A stretch of 64,000 bases of DNA from Acidobacteriota bacterium (lineage in GTDB: Bacteria; Acidobacteriota; Terriglobia; Acidiferrales; UBA7541). The stretch lies in contig QHYH01000107.1 of NCBI GenBank assembly GCA_003223215.1, forward strand, positions 1 to 64,000, in the 5' to 3' direction. Positions 1,238 to 40,758 of this stretch are shown piece after piece; the first letter of the stretch is position 1, and every line of letters starts with the position of its first letter. The notes under the pieces are model-generated. The model searched no databases and was not told where the DNA came from. It saw nothing but the letters and a program-made list of their open reading frames with translations. Position numbers and translations under genes: made by a program.

Positions 1238-1546
1238 ATGCGTGTACCTACTGGCCGATATGAAGAGCGCACTCCGAGGGCAGTGACGGTAGAGTTCTTG
1301 CGCTTTGACGAATTGCAATCTAATAAGAGGGCGGTCACTGAAAATGTGAGTCCTCGGGGTGCGCGCATCGTGACTGACTGGAACTGCGCTCCCGGAAAGC
1401 ATGTCCTGGTTACTGCCCCAAGGGAAGGCGTCAAGTCGCTGGCGCGTGTGGTTTACTGCCAACAGCTAGAAAGCACAAAATTTGCTGTCGGCCTCCAATT
1501 TGTAGTGCGGGTCGAAGAGTGGGGGAAACCTACCAGCCACGCATGA
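1238..1546 (+). CDS. PilZ-domain protein (second paralogue)
   Basis: A 102-residue single PilZ domain. Both halves of the cyclic di-GMP site are visible: R-Y-E-E-R (RxxxR) near residues 7-11 and N-V-S-P-R-G near residue 37. These are followed by A-R-V-V-Y-C-Q and F-A-V-G-L-Q-F, almost word for word as in the flanking paralogues. The ATG at 1238 follows a modest AAAGGCGAG ribosome site. The upstream region carries a long inverted repeat and copy A of the repeated element, so expression may be controlled there. No effector domain is attached; it probably acts through a partner protein. Binding of cyclic di-GMP is inferred from motifs only. Confidence 0.8.
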   Translation: MRVPTGRYEERTPRAVTVEFLRFDELQSNKRAVTENVSPRGARIVTDWNCAPGKHVLVTAPREGVKSLARVVYCQQLESTKFAVGLQFVVRVEEWGKPTSHA

Positions 1547-1566: not shown

Positions 1567-1923
1567 TCAATCACTGTATTCGGCATCACGTTGGCGCGAC
1601 CCATGCGCAAGTCCGAACAGAAACTGTAGCCCGAGTGCAAATGCATTGGCTGGAAGCGGCTGGCAGTAGACGATCCTCGCACGTGCACAGAGTTCGCCTA
1701 GTGCAGACTTTACAAGTACAGAAGTCCCCTTCTTCCATGGACGGTTAGTTCGCACGCGCGCTCCATAAGGGCTCACGTTTTCCGTCGAAACATACTGCAT
1801 TGACAGCGGCTTCTCCCCATTCGAGAGTAGAACCCGAAATGTCTGTGGGCTCCTCTTTTCTCTCCGGCTGTCGATGGCGGTGGAAAAAGGGGCCAAAACA
1901 GCGGTGGTCTGGTTACTTTTCAC
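1567..1923 (-). CDS. PilZ-domain protein (third paralogue, opposite strand)
   Basis: A 118-residue PilZ protein convergent with the second copy (20 bp between stops). R-R-E-K-R near residue 20 and N-V-S-P-Y-G supply both halves of the cyclic di-GMP site, and A-R-I-V-Y-C-Q-P-L-P plus F-A-L-G-L-Q-F match the paralogues. I prefer the GTG at 1923, which has AAAGGGG 4 nt upstream. An in-frame TTG at 1980 would put the ~40-bp repeated element inside the coding region. If the shorter form is right, the repeat (copy B) is this gene's leader and supplies its ribosome site. Confidence 0.75.
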   Translation of the reverse strand: MKSNQTTAVLAPFSTAIDSRREKRSPQTFRVLLSNGEKPLSMQYVSTENVSPYGARVRTNRPWKKGTSVLVKSALGELCARARIVYCQPLPANAFALGLQFLFGLAHGSRQRDAEYSD

Positions 1924-1930
1924 TCTGCCC

Positions 1931-1973
1931 CTTTCCCTCTTGGAAGGGGGTGTTCTCTCAGAACGGCCCGCAG
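1931..1973 (-). repeat. ~40-bp repeated element, copy B (inverted)
   Basis: Read on the minus strand it contains GGCCGTTCTGAGAG and CCAAGAGGGAAAG, matching copies A and C with an internal difference. With copy C it forms an imperfect inverted repeat around a ~45-bp spacer. Confidence 0.65.
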
Positions 1974-1976
1974 CGG

Positions 1977-2189
1977 TCAAGGGCGCGCCGGTGTTGCGCG
2001 GCGAAGCGAACCCTTCACGGCGAGGACCGTTCTGAGATCCTCGACAAGAGGGAAAGGGGTGGCATAATCCCGCGCGATCTCCTGCATCAACTCCAATTCC
2101 TGTTTCGAGAAGAGCCGGCCACTGAAACGCACCGGGAGAAAAACACCGCCAGCTTCTCGCACCGAGCGATCAGGAATAAGTAATGTCAC
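1977..2189 (-). pseudogene. Possible DruA-like (DUF4338) N-terminal remnant
   Basis: Minus-strand reading gives a 70-residue frame containing R-F-S-G-R-L-F-S-K-Q-E-L-E-L-M-Q-E-I-A. This resembles the start of DUF4338/DruA-type proteins that often travel with transposases. After that block the frame runs into repeat copy C and loses similarity, so it cannot be an intact gene. It directly follows the transposase remnant on the same strand, consistent with one decayed mobile element. The family assignment is from memory of the motif and is uncertain. Confidence 0.3.
2018..2058 (+). repeat. ~40-bp repeated element, copy C
   Basis: Same orientation as copy A, 1 kb away: CGGCGAGGACCGTTCTGA then GATCCTCGACAAGAGGGAAAGG. 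It differs from A by a few substitutions and one missing base. Confidence 0.75.
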
Positions 2190-2616: not shown

Positions 2617-3792
2617 TCACATCGTGGCTTTTACGTCTCCGGCAATCGGCACCATTCGCCCATTGCGGACCGCATATTCGACCGGGCCCCATCGGATACG
2701 GTTCGAACCGAAGCTCACCAGCCAAACCACAAAGTAAATGGCGTCGCGAACCGGCACGAGCCAGAGATTTCGCCTTAAAACTTGGTCGCCAACGCCCCAT
2801 CCTCCAACGGTCCAGGCCATACCGGAACGCAGAACCACGTATGCAGCGGGGTATATGCCAGCGATCCATCCTGCTGGTGCAGCCAGAGCCGCGAGGACCA
2901 TCCAGGGCAGTCCTTGCGTGAAGAGCAGTCCCAGGTAGGAAAGTGGCCGACACAGCCTTACCGTGCGGGCCCAGCGCAATTGATGCTCCCAAAAACCACG
3001 GAGCGTTTGCGCCGTATACATGGTCCAAACCGGTTCCCGCGACAGGACAATTTCTCCACCGGCCTCGGCGAGCTTGTAGCCCAATTCGTAATCGTCCGCT
3101 AGGGCATCGACTAGCACTTCGAACCCCCCCATTCTTCGGACCCATTCCTTGGTGGTGGCAATCGAGGCTCCCAGCGCGAAGCGGATTCCTTCCTTCCATC
3201 GCGCCACCAGCACACCAGCAAAAAAATCGCTGGCCGCGCCAATAGCTTCCAGTTTTGCGCCGAGATTTTCCTGGGCAATCGCGCGATAGAACGATGTGAC
3301 CGCGGCGATTTTCTTGTCGCGCAGGGGCGCAACCACTTCGCGAAGATAGCTTGGCCCGACGCGCACGTCGCCATCGGTCAGCACAAGCACGTCGTGTTGA
3401 GCTTCCCGGGCCAGCATCACTAGCTTGTTTACCTTGCGGTTCGCACCCAGGTCCGCTGCGCTCGTGAACAATCGAATTTGTCGTTGAGGAAATTCCGCAA
3501 TGATTTGCCGAATCACGGGCAAGGCCGGATCGCTCTCATCATTGACCGCAAACAAGATTTCGTAGTCCGGATAATCCTGTTTGCAGAAACTTGCGAAGTT
3601 TTCGTAGGAGCCGAAGTCCACGCCGCGCACGGGCTTGAGCAGGCTTGCTGGCGGACTGTACTCTGCACGTGTTTCTCCCCGTTGCGGGCGGAAAAACTGC
3701 AACGCAGCAAGAATCGCCAGCAGGTAGTAAACCAACGGAAAAGCCGCTACCAGCAGCAGGACATCGCGCCAGAGAGGGTAGTGCCAGATCAC
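2617..3792 (-). CDS. hpnI: Hopanoid glycosyltransferase HpnI
   Basis: Membrane family-2 glycosyltransferase of 391 residues. In known systems HpnI adds N-acetylglucosamine to bacteriohopanetetrol. A membrane segment covers residues 11-33. The S-L-L-K-P-V-R-G block (50-57), the D-G-D metal motif (140-142), an A-D-D-Y-E-L-G block (232-238) and Q-L-R-W-A-R-T (271-277, the QxxRW motif of ceramide-glucosyltransferase-like enzymes) are in order. Hydrophobic helices fill the C-terminal quarter. It is the last gene of an operon with HpnJ and two small transporters (46-bp gap from the preceding gene), which supports the hopanoid assignment. The squalene-hopene cyclase and other hpn genes are not in the window. 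Confidence 0.8.
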   Translation of the reverse strand: MIWHYPLWRDVLLLVAAFPLVYYLLAILAALQFFRPQRGETRAEYSPPASLLKPVRGVDFGSYENFASFCKQDYPDYEILFAVNDESDPALPVIRQIIAEFPQRQIRLFTSAADLGANRKVNKLVMLAREAQHDVLVLTDGDVRVGPSYLREVVAPLRDKKIAAVTSFYRAIAQENLGAKLEAIGAASDFFAGVLVARWKEGIRFALGASIATTKEWVRRMGGFEVLVDALADDYELGYKLAEAGGEIVLSREPVWTMYTAQTLRGFWEHQLRWARTVRLCRPLSYLGLLFTQGLPWMVLAALAAPAGWIAGIYPAAYVVLRSGMAWTVGGWGVGDQVLRRNLWLVPVRDAIYFVVWLVSFGSNRIRWGPVEYAVRNGRMVPIAGDVKATM

Positions 3793-3838
3793 GAGAGCCG
3801 GCCCGCTATCATCATAGAAATTCTCTCAGGATCTTGCG

Positions 3839-4213
3839 TCAACCCGCTGCAACCAGCGCGACGCCTATGCAGACCAAGATGACTCCGGCCCACCGTGCGG
3901 TGCTTACTTCTTCCCCAAGAATGAATTTTGCCCCAACCGTTCCGGCGACATAGCTGAGCGCGGACGCTGGAATCACCAGGCTTATCGGCGCCCAGGACAG
4001 CAAAAGAAGGAGGGCATAGAACGAGAACGCCATCAGCGGAACGCCGGTCCAAAACCAGCCGTTCCGCACCGCACGTCCCAGAAACTCGACTACCGCCCCT
4101 GGCCGCAACCGCGCCGGCTCACCTACCGACTTCATTCCGTGGGTGATGGCGATCTCGCCGCCAGTGCTGCCCAGAATCAGCACCGCAAGTCCCACGACGA
4201 CACGAACGTACAT
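3839..4213 (-). CDS. Small EamA/EmrE-like 4-TM transporter (subunit 2)
   Basis: A 124-residue protein made almost wholly of four hydrophobic helices, half the length of a standard EamA/DMT transporter. It resembles EmrE, ArnE and ArnF, which work as dimers. The ATG at 4213 overlaps the TGA of the upstream homologue (TGATG), implying translational coupling and probably equimolar synthesis. A longer frame starting at 4306 would overlap the preceding gene extensively and reads as non-membrane sequence, so I rejected it. Sitting between hpnJ and hpnI, the pair may flip a glycosylated hopanoid or its lipid precursor. That role is inference from position and similarity to ArnEF. Confidence 0.75.
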   Translation of the reverse strand: MYVRVVVGLAVLILGSTGGEIAITHGMKSVGEPARLRPGAVVEFLGRAVRNGWFWTGVPLMAFSFYALLLLLSWAPISLVIPASALSYVAGTVGAKFILGEEVSTARWAGVILVCIGVALVAAG

Positions 4214-4641
4214 CAGGCAGCTACCTCGCTGGGCACTTCCGTGGTTCGAGGTTTGGTTTGTCCGACCAGGAGAACACCCACACAAATCAGGACCACGCCG
4301 ATCCATCGCCGCGGCGAAACGGATTCGTGAAGGAAAACGACCGCCAGGAAAGTAAGCGCTGCGTACCCAATTGCGCCGGCAGGCATGACGTAACTATAAT
4401 CCGCCCAACTCAGCACGGTCATGTAGCTGACCATAAATCCGATGAGAAAAAAGATTGCCAGCCAAATGGTCGTACTCGCTACGGTTAGGCGAAAAGCCTG
4501 GGAGATTCCGTGCGCTGTCAACTCCACAGCGCCAATCTGCGCCATGCCGTACTTGAGCAACAAGTCTCCAGCGTTCGCGCACACGACCATGGCCAAGACC
4601 ATGGCCAGCGTCTTGATCCGCAGCCTTTTCTCGCTTGCCAT
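4213..4641 (-). CDS. Small EamA/EmrE-like 4-TM transporter (subunit 1)
   Basis: A 142-residue four-helix membrane protein of the drug/metabolite transporter superfamily. A short charged N-terminus (M-A-S-E-K-R-L-R-I-K) precedes helix 1, and the last helix (W-I-G-V-V-L-I-C-V-G-V-L-L-V-G) is followed by a polar tail. It starts 9 bp after hpnJ and its stop codon overlaps the start of the second small transporter. Two unequal neighbouring genes of this type suggest a heterodimer like ArnE/ArnF, which moves undecaprenyl-phosphate-aminoarabinose. The substrate is unknown; operon context points to a hopanoid head-group lipid. Confidence 0.75.
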   Translation of the reverse strand: MASEKRLRIKTLAMVLAMVVCANAGDLLLKYGMAQIGAVELTAHGISQAFRLTVASTTIWLAIFFLIGFMVSYMTVLSWADYSYVMPAGAIGYAALTFLAVVFLHESVSPRRWIGVVLICVGVLLVGQTKPRTTEVPSEVAA

Positions 4642-4650
4642 GTTGGGGAG

Positions 4651-6156
4651 CTAGTCGTTTCCGGAAGCCGAACTTGCTCCGGGGACCGAAACCATGGGCT
4701 TGTTGTAATCTTCGCCGCCCTTGCGCGCCCATTTCAGGCGCTCCGCGCGCAGCTTCAAAAACTCCGTAGCTTCCGAGTAGAGCCGCTTGCGCTCGTGGCT
4801 GTCCCACAATGCGTCTTTGACGATGCGCCAGACAACTCTCGGCCGGAAGTAATACTCATCATAGAAACGGTTTACGCCGTCCATCATCTGGGCTTTCGAG
4901 AGATGGGGGTACTCGATGTGCGGAAGCTGGTGCCCGCTGGAATCTGCCAAGGCTTCGACTTTGAGGAATCCCTGCGCCGCCATGGTGTCGTGAAGTTCGG
5001 TTCCCGGCATGGCATGAGCCAGCGACACCTGGATGGTCTCGCAGTCCAGTTCTTTGGCAAAGTCGATGGTTTTTTGGATCGTTTCCTTGGTCTCGCCGGG
5101 CAGGCCGATGATGAAGTCGCCATGTACCTTGATGTGGTATTTGCGACAATGCTTGCGGAAGTTGCGCGCCATCTCCACCGTCGCGCCCTTCTTGATGTTC
5201 TTCAGGATTTGCGCGTCACCGGATTCGAATCCCACGATGAACAGCCGCGCGCCCGCCTCGGCCATGGCCTTGACCGTTTCTTCATCACTATGCACACGCG
5301 CCGTGGACGACCAGCGGAACTTCAGCGGCTTGAGCTTGGCCGAGAGCTCCAAAACGCGATCCTTGCGGATGTTGAACGTGTCGTCGTCAAAGAAAATCTC
5401 TTTCATTTGCGGGAAGTATTCGAGCGCTTGCTTGACTTCCCGCGCCACGTTATCGGTCGAGCGAGTCCGCCAGGCGTGTCCGGAAAGGGTTTGCGGCCAC
5501 ATGCAAAAGGTGCAAAGCGCCGGACATCCCCGGGTGGTATAGAAGGAAATAAAGGGATGCAACAGGAAGGGGACGTTGTAGCGCCCGATTTCCAGATCGC
5601 GCTTGTAAATGTCTGAAGCGAACGGCAGGGCGTCGAGCTCCTCGGTGTGGAGTTGCGGGCGCTCCGGGTTGTGCACAATCTTGCCGTCCTTGCGGTAGCT
5701 CACGCCAAGAATCTCGCCGAGCGGGCGCCCGCGCGCGTACTCGGTCACCGAGTAATCGAATTCCCCGCGCGTGACGAAGTCGATGTCTTCGCTGGCATTC
5801 AGCGTCTCGTCGGGCTTGATGTGTCCGTGGGGTCCGACAAAAGCGATCTTCATGCTGGGATTGGCTTCTTTGATCTTGCGAATGAGCTTCAGGTCGCTTT
5901 GCAGACCCACGGTCGAGGTGAACAAAACTAGGAACTCGTAGTCCTTCGAGATCTCCACCGTCTGCTGCCAGTTCACCTTGTGCGGCGAAGCATCCAGCAA
6001 CCGGCTCCCGGGGAGCATACCGGCCGGGTAGGTCAGCCAAACGGGATACCAATAGGATTCAATCTCCCGCGTCGCGGGCCACCGCGAGCTGGCGCCGCCG
6101 TCAAAGTTCTCGAAACTCGGCGGGTTCAGCAACAAAGTTTTCATCACTTCCGGCAT
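4651..6156 (-). CDS. hpnJ: Hopanoid-associated radical SAM protein HpnJ
   Basis: A 501-residue B12-binding-type radical SAM enzyme. It opens with the M-K-T-L-L-L-N-P-P-S-F-E-N-F-D-G-G block typical of HpnJ. A cobalamin-binding-like domain covers roughly residues 1-140, and the iron-sulfur cluster motif C-P-A-L-C-T-F-C places cysteines at 211, 215 and 218. In characterised systems HpnJ converts the glucosamine head group of bacteriohopanetetrol to the cyclitol ether. GAGG stands about 7 nt before the ATG at 6156; an alternative ATG four codons later also has a plausible site. It is the first gene of the operon hpnJ, two EamA genes, hpnI. Related B12-radical SAM families are the main alternative. 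Confidence 0.8.
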   Translation of the reverse strand: MPEVMKTLLLNPPSFENFDGGASSRWPATREIESYWYPVWLTYPAGMLPGSRLLDASPHKVNWQQTVEISKDYEFLVLFTSTVGLQSDLKLIRKIKEANPSMKIAFVGPHGHIKPDETLNASEDIDFVTRGEFDYSVTEYARGRPLGEILGVSYRKDGKIVHNPERPQLHTEELDALPFASDIYKRDLEIGRYNVPFLLHPFISFYTTRGCPALCTFCMWPQTLSGHAWRTRSTDNVAREVKQALEYFPQMKEIFFDDDTFNIRKDRVLELSAKLKPLKFRWSSTARVHSDEETVKAMAEAGARLFIVGFESGDAQILKNIKKGATVEMARNFRKHCRKYHIKVHGDFIIGLPGETKETIQKTIDFAKELDCETIQVSLAHAMPGTELHDTMAAQGFLKVEALADSSGHQLPHIEYPHLSKAQMMDGVNRFYDEYYFRPRVVWRIVKDALWDSHERKRLYSEATEFLKLRAERLKWARKGGEDYNKPMVSVPGASSASGND

Positions 6157-6453: not shown

Positions 6454-7839
6454 TTATCTACTTTCTTTCGCGCGGCCCCCGGCAGAGGTTCGAAAGACTT
6501 CCGAAGCGGCTTCCGACAGCAACTCCCAAATGCGCTCGACCCAGTCGTAGTGTTCCGGTTTCATCAGCACGGACCGCAAACAGGTCAGTCTGTCGCGGTC
6601 GCGTTTCATTAGGCCGAGGTCCTTCTCCCAGAAATGAACCGGCAGTTCTGCGACTGCCAGATGCAGGTTGCCCTTGGCTGCGGCTTCAAAGATTTTCCGG
6701 CTCATTTCGGAAGATTCGCTCACACTTTCACCGCGCGGCGCAAACACTAAGATGTCCAGCTCCGGAGTAAAGGCCGTTACAAACCGCGAATCCGCTTTCA
6801 GTTTGTCGAACAACGCCAGCGCAGATTTCCTGCCCCGTTCCAATCCGCGCGCAAATTCTCCGTGCTTCTTAAGCGGCAGCAGCCTTTGCGTCGCCCAAAG
6901 AGCTGCCGCCGCCGCGCCGGGCCTCGAGCACTCCAGGCTGATTTCTCCCAAATGCAATTCCGCCGAACTGAAATACGTGTACGGCGAATCGTGCTTATAC
7001 AGCCGCCCAATGCGCGGGTCACGAAACAAGACACATCCACATCCATACGGCTGCAAACCGTGTTTGTGCGGATCAATCACGATGGAGTCGGCCTTTCCTA
7101 TTTGGTCGAAAGCCAGTCTTGCGTCTCTCTCGAGATTCTGCGCCAGAGCGAAATATCCTCCGTAAGCCGCGTCCGCGTGAACCCGGAACCCGTGTTTCGC
7201 GCTCAACTCCAATGTCGTCGGCAATGGATCCACGGAACCCGTTGCCGTCGTTCCCATTGTGACAACAACTGTTCCCACATCCCCATGCTCCAGGCGTGTC
7301 GCCAGCGCATTACTGTCCATGCGCCCGAGCTGGTCGGTAGCTACCGATTCGAACGGCAGTTGCAGCACGCCGCTGATTCTGCGGTGCGTGTAATGCGCCT
7401 GTTCGCTCGCCAGAATTTTCTTCCCAGGATGGAGTTGCCCCGCAACCCATAAGGCTTCCAGGTTTGCCATCGTTCCGCCGCTCGAGAGGTGCCCCAGAAA
7501 ACTTGTCCAACCGACCATGGCGGCAATCTCGGTGACGGCTTCCTTTTCCATCGCCGACGTGGCGCGCCCGCCATCCAAGGCGTGATTGTTGGGATTGATC
7601 CACATGGCCAGCGCGTAGGCCATCCGCGCCACCGGGTGTGGCGGCTTTAGCATCTGTCCGGCATAGAGAGGATGAAAATACGGGTAGTTGTCCTTCAGCC
7701 GCTCGGCTGTCGTATTCAGTACCTCTTCAAGGCGGTCCATTCCAGGTGGCTGCCCTTCCAGGTTCGGTAACCCCGTAAAACCACAATCCAGCCGTTTCGC
7801 GGCTTCCCAAAGCGCCCCAAAACTTTTCTGGTCGAGCAT
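6454..7839 (-). CDS. Group II pyridoxal-5'-phosphate decarboxylase
   Basis: A 461-residue amino-acid decarboxylase of the glutamate/tyrosine/aromatic family, cytosolic. S-S-G-G-T-M-A-N (119-126) contacts the cofactor, H-A-D-A-A-Y-G-G-Y (221-229) supplies the aspartate to the pyridine nitrogen, and I-D-P-H-K-H-G (255-261) carries the Schiff-base lysine K259. The substrate cannot be told from sequence; tyrosine-, aspartate- and glutamate-type enzymes all share these motifs. It is the last gene of the efflux operon, starting 40 bp after the TolC-like gene. A link between amine production and export is therefore possible, but the short gap may simply reflect co-transcription. Confidence 0.85.
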   Translation of the reverse strand: MLDQKSFGALWEAAKRLDCGFTGLPNLEGQPPGMDRLEEVLNTTAERLKDNYPYFHPLYAGQMLKPPHPVARMAYALAMWINPNNHALDGGRATSAMEKEAVTEIAAMVGWTSFLGHLSSGGTMANLEALWVAGQLHPGKKILASEQAHYTHRRISGVLQLPFESVATDQLGRMDSNALATRLEHGDVGTVVVTMGTTATGSVDPLPTTLELSAKHGFRVHADAAYGGYFALAQNLERDARLAFDQIGKADSIVIDPHKHGLQPYGCGCVLFRDPRIGRLYKHDSPYTYFSSAELHLGEISLECSRPGAAAAALWATQRLLPLKKHGEFARGLERGRKSALALFDKLKADSRFVTAFTPELDILVFAPRGESVSESSEMSRKIFEAAAKGNLHLAVAELPVHFWEKDLGLMKRDRDRLTCLRSVLMKPEHYDWVERIWELLSEAASEVFRTSAGGRAKESR

Positions 7840-39831: not shown

Positions 39832-40758
39832 ATGCACATGCGTCGAGCCGCGGCGGTTGCAACTTTCCTGCTGGTCACGGGCGCCCTTGGGCGCGCACAA
39901 ACCAAGACGGTGGCGGAGCGCTTGGGCTATCCACCGGATGCGAAACTTCTGATTGTGCACGCGGACGATCTCGCGGTTGCACATTCGGTGGATGCCGCAA
40001 GTTTTGACGCCCTGGACAAAAACGCGGTGACTTCCGCAAGCGTGATGGTGCCGTGTCCCTGGCTGAATGAAGTTGCGGCCTACGCCAGAGGCCATGCCAG
40101 TGCGGATCTGGGTTTGCACCTCACGCTGACAAGCGAATGGAAGATCTACCGCTGGGGACCGGTGGAATCGAAGGATAAAGTGCCAAGCCTTCTCGATTCT
40201 TCGGGCGCTCTCTGGCCGGAAACGGCGCCCGCGGCGCAAAATATCAAACCTGACGAGGCGGAGCGCGAGATTCGCGCGCAAGTGGAACGCGCGGTGGCGG
40301 CGGGAATCCGGCCGACACATTTGGACAGTCACATGGGCGTGCTTTTCGCGAGGCCCAGTCTTTTCGCCGTGTATGTGAAGGTCGCTCACGAATACGGTCT
40401 GCCGTTTTTGGCGCCGCGCATTCCGGGAGATCCTCTGAAGTTCTCCTCGCAACTCTCGGGAAAGGACCCCGTCGTGGATTCGGTGGTGATGGCCAACCCT
40501 ACGGTCCACGCGGACCGCTGGAAAGAGTTTTACGAAACGGCCATCAAGAATTTGAAGCCGGGGCTTTCGGAAATGATCGTGCACCTTGGTCATGACGACG
40601 CGGAGCTCGAGGCGGTGGCGCTCGACCATCCCGACTACGGTTCGGCGTGGCGCCAGCGAGACTATGATTTTGTGACCAGTGCGGAATTCAGGAAAATGCT
40701 CGAGGAGAACCACATTGTCCTCATCCACTGGAGGGACCTGGAGAAGCTGGCGAAGTAG
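39832..40758 (+). CDS. Secreted YdjC/ChbG/HpnK-family deacetylase-like protein
   Basis: A 308-residue protein with a signal peptide (M-R-R-A-A-A-V-A-T-F-L-L-V-T-G-A then Q-T-K) and a YdjC fold. I-V-H-A-D-D-L-A-V-A-H-S carries the first metal aspartate, and H-L-D-S-H-M-G-V-L matches the S-H-x-H region but lacks its last histidine. YdjC enzymes deacetylate N-acetylglucosamine units; HpnK does so on glycosylated hopanoids and is usually not secreted. A role after the HpnI/EamA pair is possible but it lies 36 kb away. GGAGGG precedes the ATG at 39832. Confidence 0.78.
   Translation: MHMRRAAAVATFLLVTGALGRAQTKTVAERLGYPPDAKLLIVHADDLAVAHSVDAASFDALDKNAVTSASVMVPCPWLNEVAAYARGHASADLGLHLTLTSEWKIYRWGPVESKDKVPSLLDSSGALWPETAPAAQNIKPDEAEREIRAQVERAVAAGIRPTHLDSHMGVLFARPSLFAVYVKVAHEYGLPFLAPRIPGDPLKFSSQLSGKDPVVDSVVMANPTVHADRWKEFYETAIKNLKPGLSEMIVHLGHDDAELEAVALDHPDYGSAWRQRDYDFVTSAEFRKMLEENHIVLIHWRDLEKLAK

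What the first reader, a model, noticed from the sequence alone, without database searches (positions are those of the whole stretch)
2617..6156. Hopanoid head-group operon with an embedded ArnEF-like transporter pair
hpnJ and hpnI bracket two tightly coupled 4-TM EamA genes (TGATG overlap), and the four genes form one operon. HpnI and HpnJ build amino-sugar or cyclitol hopanoid heads. ArnE/ArnF-type heterodimers flip amino-sugar-modified lipids. The arrangement suggests a dedicated flippase for glycosylated hopanoids, a step for which I know no assigned protein. HpnJ/HpnI identity is seen from motifs; the flippase role is inference.
Basis: partly seen in the sequence, partly recalled or inferred. 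Interest (0 to 1): 0.65.

Follow-up and report, generated by a model that had tools for sequence, protein, structure and literature searches.

The report
Candidate flippase for sugar-headed hopanoids
Two small paired membrane proteins sit among, and are sometimes fused to, the enzymes that put sugar heads on hopanoids (bacterial sterol-like lipids), which makes them a strong candidate for the unassigned step that flips these lipids across the inner membrane.

Summary
In detail: hpnJ, two overlapping 4-TM EamA/SMR-like genes (E1, E2) and hpnI lie on the minus strand, 6156-2617. The pair lies downstream of hpnJ in 72 of 80 named hpnJ loci, mostly Acidobacteriota. In samples of two further phyla an E gene lies in 43 of 62 hpnJ loci, usually single and beside hpnK or hpnI. 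Four hpnJ-less acidobacteria have hpnI with a single E1 nearby. New evidence: E2 is fused to HpnI in eight genomes (probably two events); E1 and E2 have opposite positive-charge bias (E1 higher in 111 of 112 pairs), as in antiparallel SMR heterodimers, and the fusion fits that orientation; the E1 model has the SMR fold; no hpnJ locus (0 of 145) has both an E gene and flippase-like HpnL, though some genomes do; this genome has a second pair beside a second HpnI homologue. Best explanation: a lipid-flippase heterodimer for head-group-modified hopanoids, working like ArnE/ArnF but not an ArnE/F equivalog. A role in the pathway is nearly certain; flipping is inferred. Against: pairs without hpn neighbours in two families, HpnK rarely found in this order, no biochemistry.

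The parts
4651..6156 (-). hpnJ, radical SAM enzyme with B12-binding domain (BHT cyclitol ether step)
   Evidence: TIGR03471 710.4 bits, cut-off 577.6; the only match over the cut-off in this genome
4213..4641 (-). E1: 4-TM EamA/SMR-like subunit, predicted N-in/C-in (charge bias +2)
   Evidence: AF2 model pLDDT 90.4, SMR fold
3839..4213 (-). E2: 4-TM EamA/SMR-like subunit, predicted N-out/C-out (charge bias -5); ATG overlaps the stop of E1
   Evidence: homologous to E1; fused to HpnI in other genomes
2617..3792 (-). hpnI, GT21/GT2-fold glycosyltransferase that adds GlcNAc to BHT
   Evidence: TIGR03472 324.6 bits, cut-off 310; Pfam Glyco_transf_21

Best explanation
E1 and E2 form an antiparallel SMR-like heterodimer in the inner membrane that moves head-group-modified hopanoids (glycosylated BHT and, where HpnK and HpnJ act, its glucosamine and cyclitol-ether derivatives) from the cytoplasmic to the periplasmic leaflet. 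HpnI glycosylates BHT, presumably at the cytoplasmic face (family knowledge). Its product has a bulky polar head that should flip poorly by itself. E2 lies next to, or is covalently joined to, HpnI and would hand the product to the E1/E2 groove; a carrier such as HpnN would then take it to the outer membrane. Shown here: gene order, conservation, fusion, charge bias, predicted fold. Inferred: heterodimer formation, a lipid as substrate, direction of transport.
For: Linkage: E1 and E2 lie downstream of hpnJ on the same strand in 72 of 80 named loci (62 within 300 bases; farthest L094 2.3 kb and L103 5.3 kb), E1 alone in 1, no E with >=4 kb of room in 4, contig ends in 3. In the order, the 30 best of 78 hpnJ genomes have E1 next to hpnJ in 30 and E2 in 29. 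In the phylum sample 31 of 36 hpnJ genomes have E1 <=2 kb downstream. Other phyla: an E gene in 33 of 39 hpnJ loci from the sampled phylum of the Nitrospirota MAG L101 and 10 of 23 from that of the Myxococcota MAG L100 (labels). Without hpnJ: hpnI-hpnK-E1 in G131, G160 and G290, and hpnI with E1 376 bases on in G329. Fusion: E2-HpnI in one frame in 7 genomes of genera g10 and g12 and in L116; the HpnI half of L125 scores 317.1 against 310. Topology: E1 bias mean +1.3, E2 -6.3, E1 above E2 in 111 of 112 pairs (formula of PMC9574504); E2 with both ends outside fits HpnI with its N-end outside and a cytosolic catalytic domain. In 16 Nitrospirota-sample genomes with an unlinked second copy that copy is positively biased in 16 and the hpnI-linked one negatively in 14. 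E1-E2 distances correlate 0.89, and 0.78 after removing the hpnJ signal (101 loci). Fold: EmrE first (Z 12.1, rmsd 3.1, 109 aligned). Second pair of this genome beside a second HpnI homologue.
Against: No biochemistry. Pairs with no hpnJ, hpnI, hpnK or hpnL match in the stretch held occur in family f21 (G263, 17 kb; G295, 9 kb; G309, 4.7 kb) and f46 (G168, at a contig start), and a lone E1 in G297. The second pair of G327 lies near a UDP-sulfoquinovose synthase-like gene and an HpnI homologue below cut-off, so the module may serve other glycolipids. In the Myxococcota sample 13 of 23 hpnJ loci have no E gene. E1 bias is negative in 21 and zero in 11 of 112, so signs are strictly opposite in only 80, and helix ends were set by eye. 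Hpn-linked single genes as a whole are not centred at zero (mean -1.28; 16 of 39 within 2). Five of 80 loci lack the pair or E2 although the contig goes on. HpnK is over cut-off in only 7 of 56 hpnJ genomes. Z 12.1 is not decisive for a helical bundle (note).
Confidence: 0.62

Rival explanations
1. General glycolipid flippase: the pair serves the product of any HpnI/GT21-type glycosyltransferase (a hopanoid here, another glycolipid at the second locus), with no hopanoid-specific recognition.
For: Second pair beside an HpnI homologue without hpnJ in the window's genome (L145), and in G327 near a UDP-sulfoquinovose synthase-like gene. Pairs with no hpn neighbour in f21 and f46.
Against: In 27 of 80 loci the pair stays with hpnJ although no hpnI lies within 4 kb after E2, and E1-hpnJ distances correlate 0.77, which suggests a hopanoid role for those copies.
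Confidence: 0.2
2. The pair carries a small molecule of the pathway (5'-deoxyadenosine from the radical SAM step, acetate, an amino sugar or a nucleotide sugar) rather than a lipid.
For: DMT relatives include nucleotide and nucleotide-sugar carriers; E1 also aligns to SLC35B1 (Z 10.8). TM1 keeps an acidic or amide residue (E1 D/N in 112 of 112, E2 E/D in 111 of 112), as proton-coupled SMRs keep a glutamate.
Against: Fusion to the lipid glycosyltransferase HpnI, none seen to HpnJ or HpnK; E1 kept with hpnI-hpnK in genomes without hpnJ, which speaks against a by-product of HpnJ (odds lowered from 0.10 to 0.08 for this); lipid SMRs often have Asn at the central position (PMC9574504, passages).
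Confidence: 0.08
3. E1/E2 is a structural or regulatory partner that anchors or activates HpnI (and HpnJ) at the membrane, without transport.
For: Fusion and tight synteny alone would also fit a scaffold.
Against: A conserved acidic or amide residue in TM1, opposite topology bias and a complete SMR transporter fold are features of transporters.
Confidence: 0.06

Closest known systems
ArnE/ArnF (undecaprenyl-phosphate-aminoarabinose flippase, lipid subtype of SMR)
   Same: two small 4-TM subunits encoded side by side in an operon that decorates a lipid with a sugar; weak similarity (ArnE model at E<=0.01 in 43 of 69 E1 and 63 of 66 E2)
   Different: far below the ArnE/ArnF cut-offs; operon is hpn, not arn; inferred substrate is a hopanoid, not a polyprenyl phosphate; E2 can be fused to the glycosyltransferase. 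More E1 members (64 of 69) match the phosphonate-associated EamA model TIGR03340, also far below its cut-off in the window (18.6 v 288.15)
SMR transporters (EmrE, Gdx; paired SMRs such as EbrAB, MdtIJ)
   Same: predicted fold; opposite charge bias of paired subunits
   Different: Pfam SMR model matches 2 of 69 E1 at E<=0.01; no evidence of drug, guanidinium or polyamine transport
HpnL (TIGR03476, LPG_synthase_TM, flippase-like)
   Same: encoded in the hpnI/J/K neighbourhood of loci that have no EamA gene there (L069, L132, L165-L168, L176, L202)
   Different: unrelated family; function not established in print (PMC12583986, passages)
HpnN (RND hopanoid transporter)
   Same: hopanoid transport
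   Different: moves hopanoids to the outer membrane (PMC12583986, passages); an RND protein, not a 4-TM pair
EamA-like protein listed in the Leptospirillum hopanoid cluster (PMC12654047)
   Same: an EamA gene in a hopanoid cluster with a glycosyltransferase and a B12-binding radical SAM gene
   Different: only listed among the domains found; no function proposed in the passages read

Membership tests
ArnE/ArnF flippase subunits | curated NCBIfam score (ArnE 92, ArnF 99 bits) | tested here: not met
   E1 26.1 and 24.4; E2 26.4 for ArnE. Best ArnE E-value over 69 E1 and 66 E2 members is 1.3e-8, far short of what the cut-off asks
ArnE/ArnF flippase subunits | encoded in an arn (Ara4N) operon | tested here: not met
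   neighbours are hpnJ and hpnI
ArnE/ArnF flippase subunits | flips undecaprenyl-phosphate-Ara4N | not testable with these tools
   needs biochemistry
SMR-like paired transporter | 4-TM SMR fold | tested here: met
   E1 AF2 pLDDT 90.4; EmrE Z 12.1, rmsd 3.1, 109 aligned; TM 0.79 by the length of 7mgx; all of the first 11 rows are EmrE, Gdx or SLC35B1. Caution: Foldseek E at best 0.025, and Z below about 13 is not decisive for helical bundles
SMR-like paired transporter | opposite Arg/Lys bias of the adjacent subunits | tested here: met
   E1 above E2 in 111 of 112 (111 distinct); strictly opposite signs in 80 of 112
SMR Pfam family PF00893 | Pfam gathering score 23.7 | tested here: not met
   window E1 15.1, E2 no match listed; 2 of 69 E1 at E<=0.01
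EamA Pfam family PF00892 | Pfam gathering score 28.2 | tested here: inconclusive
   window E1 25.4 and E2 21.9, just below; all 69 E1 members match at E<=0.01, best 2e-9
HpnI | TIGR03472 cut-off 310 | tested here: met
   324.6 bits
HpnJ | TIGR03471 cut-off 577.6 | tested here: met
   710.4 bits
BHT cyclitol ether pathway (hpnI, hpnK, hpnJ) | HpnK deacetylase present | tested here: not met
   own genome best 189.1 bits v cut-off 232.6, unlinked; PMC5462960 (passages) also reports hpnK missing in subdivision 1 and 3 acidobacteria. A diverged HpnK is not excluded

The most novel reading that the evidence does not exclude
Glyco-hopanoid export uses two unrelated, interchangeable inner-membrane flippases: an EamA/SMR-like protein coupled (in some lineages covalently) to the glycosyltransferase HpnI, in Acidobacteriota, Nitrospirota and Myxococcota, and HpnL (LPG_synthase-type) in Proteobacteria and some others. 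E2-HpnI would be a synthase and a flippase subunit in one chain for a sterol-like lipid.
Probability: 0.35. Interest if true: 0.78.

Novelty: new variant of a known kind. Interest (0 to 1): 0.63.

Why it matters
How hopanoids with sugar heads cross the inner membrane has no assigned protein in the passages read here; only the later step to the outer membrane (HpnN) has one. A defined two-gene candidate, a natural fusion with the glycosyltransferase and a rival candidate (HpnL) make the step directly testable. It would also add a sterol-like substrate to the lipid branch of the SMR/DMT transporters.

Tried and rejected
Strict genome-wide exclusion between HpnL and the EamA genes: rejected. At the locus level none of 147 hpnJ loci (80 + 66 + L132; 145 distinct, as L100 = L181 and L101 = L200) has both: 114 of the 145 have an E gene, 8 HpnL, 23 neither. 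But genomes with both exist: G787 has the pair at hpnJ and an HpnL over cut-off on another contig (277.4 bits), and G332, G333 and others hold sub-cut-off HpnL homologues as well as E genes. Over cut-off, HpnL is in 0 of 56, 0 of 13 and 3 of 61 genomes; two of those three (G435, G522) have no E match. The local HpnL profile was made from five sequences of four loci that are themselves counted, and lineages are not independent.

Single-gene versions as dual-topology homodimers: zero bias for all was not met. Split after the fact by whether the genome has a second copy: without one 13 of 20 are within 2, with one 3 of 19; so lone copies may be homodimers and the others partners, but this split was not planned. 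G660 and G689 carry strongly biased single genes (-4) and no second copy at that threshold. The two positive outliers among the 16 linked copies (L201, L216) have unusually long reading frames. Around the unlinked copies no hpn gene was found by my profiles in the 16 stretches (a weak 86-bit HpnJ-like match in L233 apart); their neighbours were not scanned against family libraries.

I first read the E1 matches of hpnJ-less acidobacteria as lying away from hpn genes; one search showed hpnI (and in three of four hpnK) beside them in G131, G160, G290 and G329.

Fusion in L022/L144 (G006): a long HpnI frame, but E2 is in another frame; not counted. The HpnK-like gene of this genome (C215) lies next to an ArnC-like glycosyltransferase (209.5 v 529) and a tryptophan-dioxygenase-like gene; no link to hopanoids found. 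Promoter and terminator scan: no more sites than in shuffles. PDB sequence search was weak (E1: CMP-sialic acid transporter 0.0039, EmrE 0.0096; E2: NIPA2 1.5e-4). L076 was left out of alignment A4 because its E1 frame is odd. In the phylum count, 10 genomes with only weaker HpnJ-like matches (284-347 bits) were left out. Whether the genome has shc, hpnH, hpnG or hpnN was not searched.
Full report
What is there. On the minus strand the window holds hpnJ (6156-4651), E1 (4641-4213), E2 (4213-3839) and hpnI (3792-2617). HpnJ and HpnI pass their curated cut-offs (710.4 v 577.6; 324.6 v 310). E1 and E2 are 142 and 124 aa, homologous to each other, and of the EamA/DMT superfamily, scoring just under the Pfam cut-off (25.4 and 21.9 v 28.2). 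E2 starts inside the stop codon of E1. The assembly is an 8.8 Mb draft; its nearest named relatives are acidobacterial MAGs (93% HpnJ identity).

Conservation inside the phylum. Of 95 genomes of the order, 78 have hpnJ over the cut-off. In the 30 best loci E1 is next to hpnJ in 30, E2 follows in 29 (L026 lacks it), and hpnI is seen in the short stretch held in 27. 72 have E1 and E2 downstream on the same strand: 41 with hpnI after E2, 27 with none within 4 kb after E2 (many labelled Acidobacteriaceae or Terriglobia; in L101 hpnI is upstream of hpnJ), 4 where the contig ends. One has E1 only (L053), 4 have neither with at least 4 kb of room (L052, L058, L069, L084), 3 end too early. In an even sample of 237 genomes of the phylum, 36 have HpnJ of at least 430 bits (34 over the cut-off); 31 of them have E1 within 2 kb downstream. 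The others are G123 and G302 (no E1), G286 (contig end), G289 (other contig) and G224 (7.9 kb). In nine loci hpnK lies between hpnJ and E1 (L062, L086, L100, L105, L116; L134-L136, L163); in L101 it is upstream of hpnJ and in L055 an hpnK-like gene follows hpnI.

Without hpnJ. Among the hpnJ-less genomes of that sample with an E1 match, G131, G160 and G290 have hpnI-hpnK-E1 in a row, and G329 has hpnI and E1 376 bases apart; G297 has a lone E1; G263, G295, G309 and G168 have pairs with no hpn match in the stretch held (4.7-17 kb; G168 at a contig start). So the E gene goes with the sugar step, not only with HpnJ.

Outside the phylum. L100 and L116 are labelled Myxococcota and L101 Nitrospirota. 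Samples of the phyla of L100 and L101 gave hpnJ in 23 of 247 and 38 of 245 genomes. Of the 23 and 39 hpnJ loci fetched, 10 and 33 carry an E gene: 4 are pairs, 39 single genes, usually next to hpnK or hpnI. In G808 and G816 E genes lie near hpnK or hpnI on another contig. Thus 35 of the 38 Nitrospirota-sample genomes have an E gene near an hpn gene; the others are G763, with an HpnL-like gene in the cluster, and G635 and G620, where the contig ends beside hpnI. A 2025 paper lists an EamA-like protein in the Leptospirillum (Nitrospirota) hopanoid cluster, without a function (PMC12654047, passages).

Fusion. In seven genomes of genera g10 and g12 (L125-L131) E2 and HpnI are one reading frame: 521-558 aa in six gene calls, an open frame of 553 codons in L130. 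The HpnI part of L125 scores 317.1 (cut-off 310) and the N-terminal part is EamA-like though below cut-off (21.5). L116, from another phylum, has its own fusion of 529 aa, so fusion probably arose twice. In the seven whose junction was printed, E2's last hydrophobic stretch leads through a short linker into HpnI's first, which is followed by positive residues and the glycosyltransferase domain (the AF2 model of L126 has pLDDT under 50 only at the linker 124-128). That model's best PDB matches are cellulose and hyaluronan synthases.

Topology. By the charge-bias formula of the SMR review PMC9574504 (passages), 112 E1/E2 pairs (111 distinct; the complete pairs among 124 loci taken) give E1 a mean of +1.3 and E2 -6.3; E1 is higher in 111, and signs are strictly opposite in 80. 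Helix ends were set by eye; with slightly other ends the window pair scores +5 and -4 instead of +2 and -5. E2 would have both ends outside, which is what fusion to HpnI needs if the active site is cytosolic. For the single hpn-linked genes see Tried and rejected: 16 of 39 are within 2 of zero; in 16 genomes with an unlinked second copy that copy is positive in 16 and the linked one negative in 14. In the tree E2 is a well-supported side (100/98), E1 a weaker group (90/80) among the single genes (107 rows, few columns). E1-E2 distances correlate at 0.89 (0.78 after removing hpnJ; 101 loci).

Fold. The AF2 model of E1 (pLDDT 90.4) finds EmrE and Gdx first in the PDB (Foldseek E 0.025 at best); VIA-align gives Z 12.1 over 109 residues for EmrE, and the first 11 rows are EmrE, Gdx or SLC35B1. 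TM1 keeps D or N in E1 (112 of 112) and E or D in E2 (111 of 112). Whether this is the equivalent of the central glutamate of SMRs was not established; the review says that lipid SMRs often have Asn there.

Second copy. The same genome has another pair (C190) beside, and divergent from, a second HpnI homologue (290.3 bits, cut-off 310), without hpnJ. G327 has a similar pair with an HpnI homologue 5 kb away; a UDP-sulfoquinovose synthase-like gene (507.6 v 575) adjoins that homologue. In the tree the C190 pair groups with that of G327 and with hpnJ-linked pairs of genus g11, not with the window's own pair. The glycosyltransferase-plus-pair module may thus be broader than hopanoids.

HpnL. Burkholderiales plasmids carry an LPG_synthase-domain gene after hpnI or hpnK and no EamA gene in the stretch (L165, L167, L168). 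G123, an acidobacterium without the pair, has hpnJ, hpnK and an HpnL-like gene (111.7 bits, cut-off 195.65) in a row. None of 145 distinct hpnJ loci has both, but some genomes do (Tried and rejected). This suggests, but does not show, that HpnL does the same job elsewhere.

HpnK. Over the cut-off in 7 of 56 hpnJ genomes; most others have an unlinked homologue below it. PMC5462960 (passages) reports hpnI and hpnJ without hpnK in subdivisions 1 and 3. What HpnJ acts on here is open.

Print. Searches joining hopanoid terms with flippase, HpnI, HpnL, EamA, ArnE/F, transbilayer or HpnN showed no paper that proposes an EamA or SMR flippase for hopanoids. Listings were capped (20 of 34; 25 of 212; 20 of 42); beyond listings I saw passages of seven papers; the library holds only openly licensed PMC papers. 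The pathway roles of HpnI, HpnK, HpnJ and HpnN are from passages of PMC12583986.

Verdict. The pair belongs to the hopanoid head-group pathway (about 0.93). That it is a flippase for the product is the best explanation (0.62); that it is specific for hopanoids is less sure.

Noticed in passing
window 6454-7839 (-): A PLP-dependent decarboxylase lies 297 bases upstream of hpnJ and is found there in 9 loci of the same genus (L025, L031, L032, L035, L037, L038, L041, L043, L044; 71-81% identity). A role in the hopanoid head group is possible.
   Followed up: partly
window 39943-40491 (+): A weak HpnK-like (YdjC-type) match of 59.7 bits lies 34 kb from hpnJ.
   Followed up: no
L145:7946-11032 (own genome, contig C190): Second HpnI homologue, second EamA pair and, next to it, a LolA-like protein just below its Pfam cut-off (28.6 v 30): perhaps a synthesis-flip-carry set for another glycolipid.
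   Followed up: partly
L147 (G327): A pair of the same kind has an asparagine-synthase-type gene (479.3 v 267.1) next to it and, 5 kb on, an HpnI homologue with a UDP-sulfoquinovose synthase-like gene.
   Followed up: partly
L048:12562-15135: Two tandem hpnI-like genes follow the pair.
   Followed up: no
L132:25-2067 (G123): HpnI in an open frame of 680 codons (HpnI match 278-665) with no family match in the N-terminal part, in a genome without the EamA pair; it may be only an over-long frame.
   Followed up: partly
window 1567-1980 (-) and 1238-1546 (+): Two PilZ-domain proteins beyond the hpnI end of the cluster.
   Followed up: no
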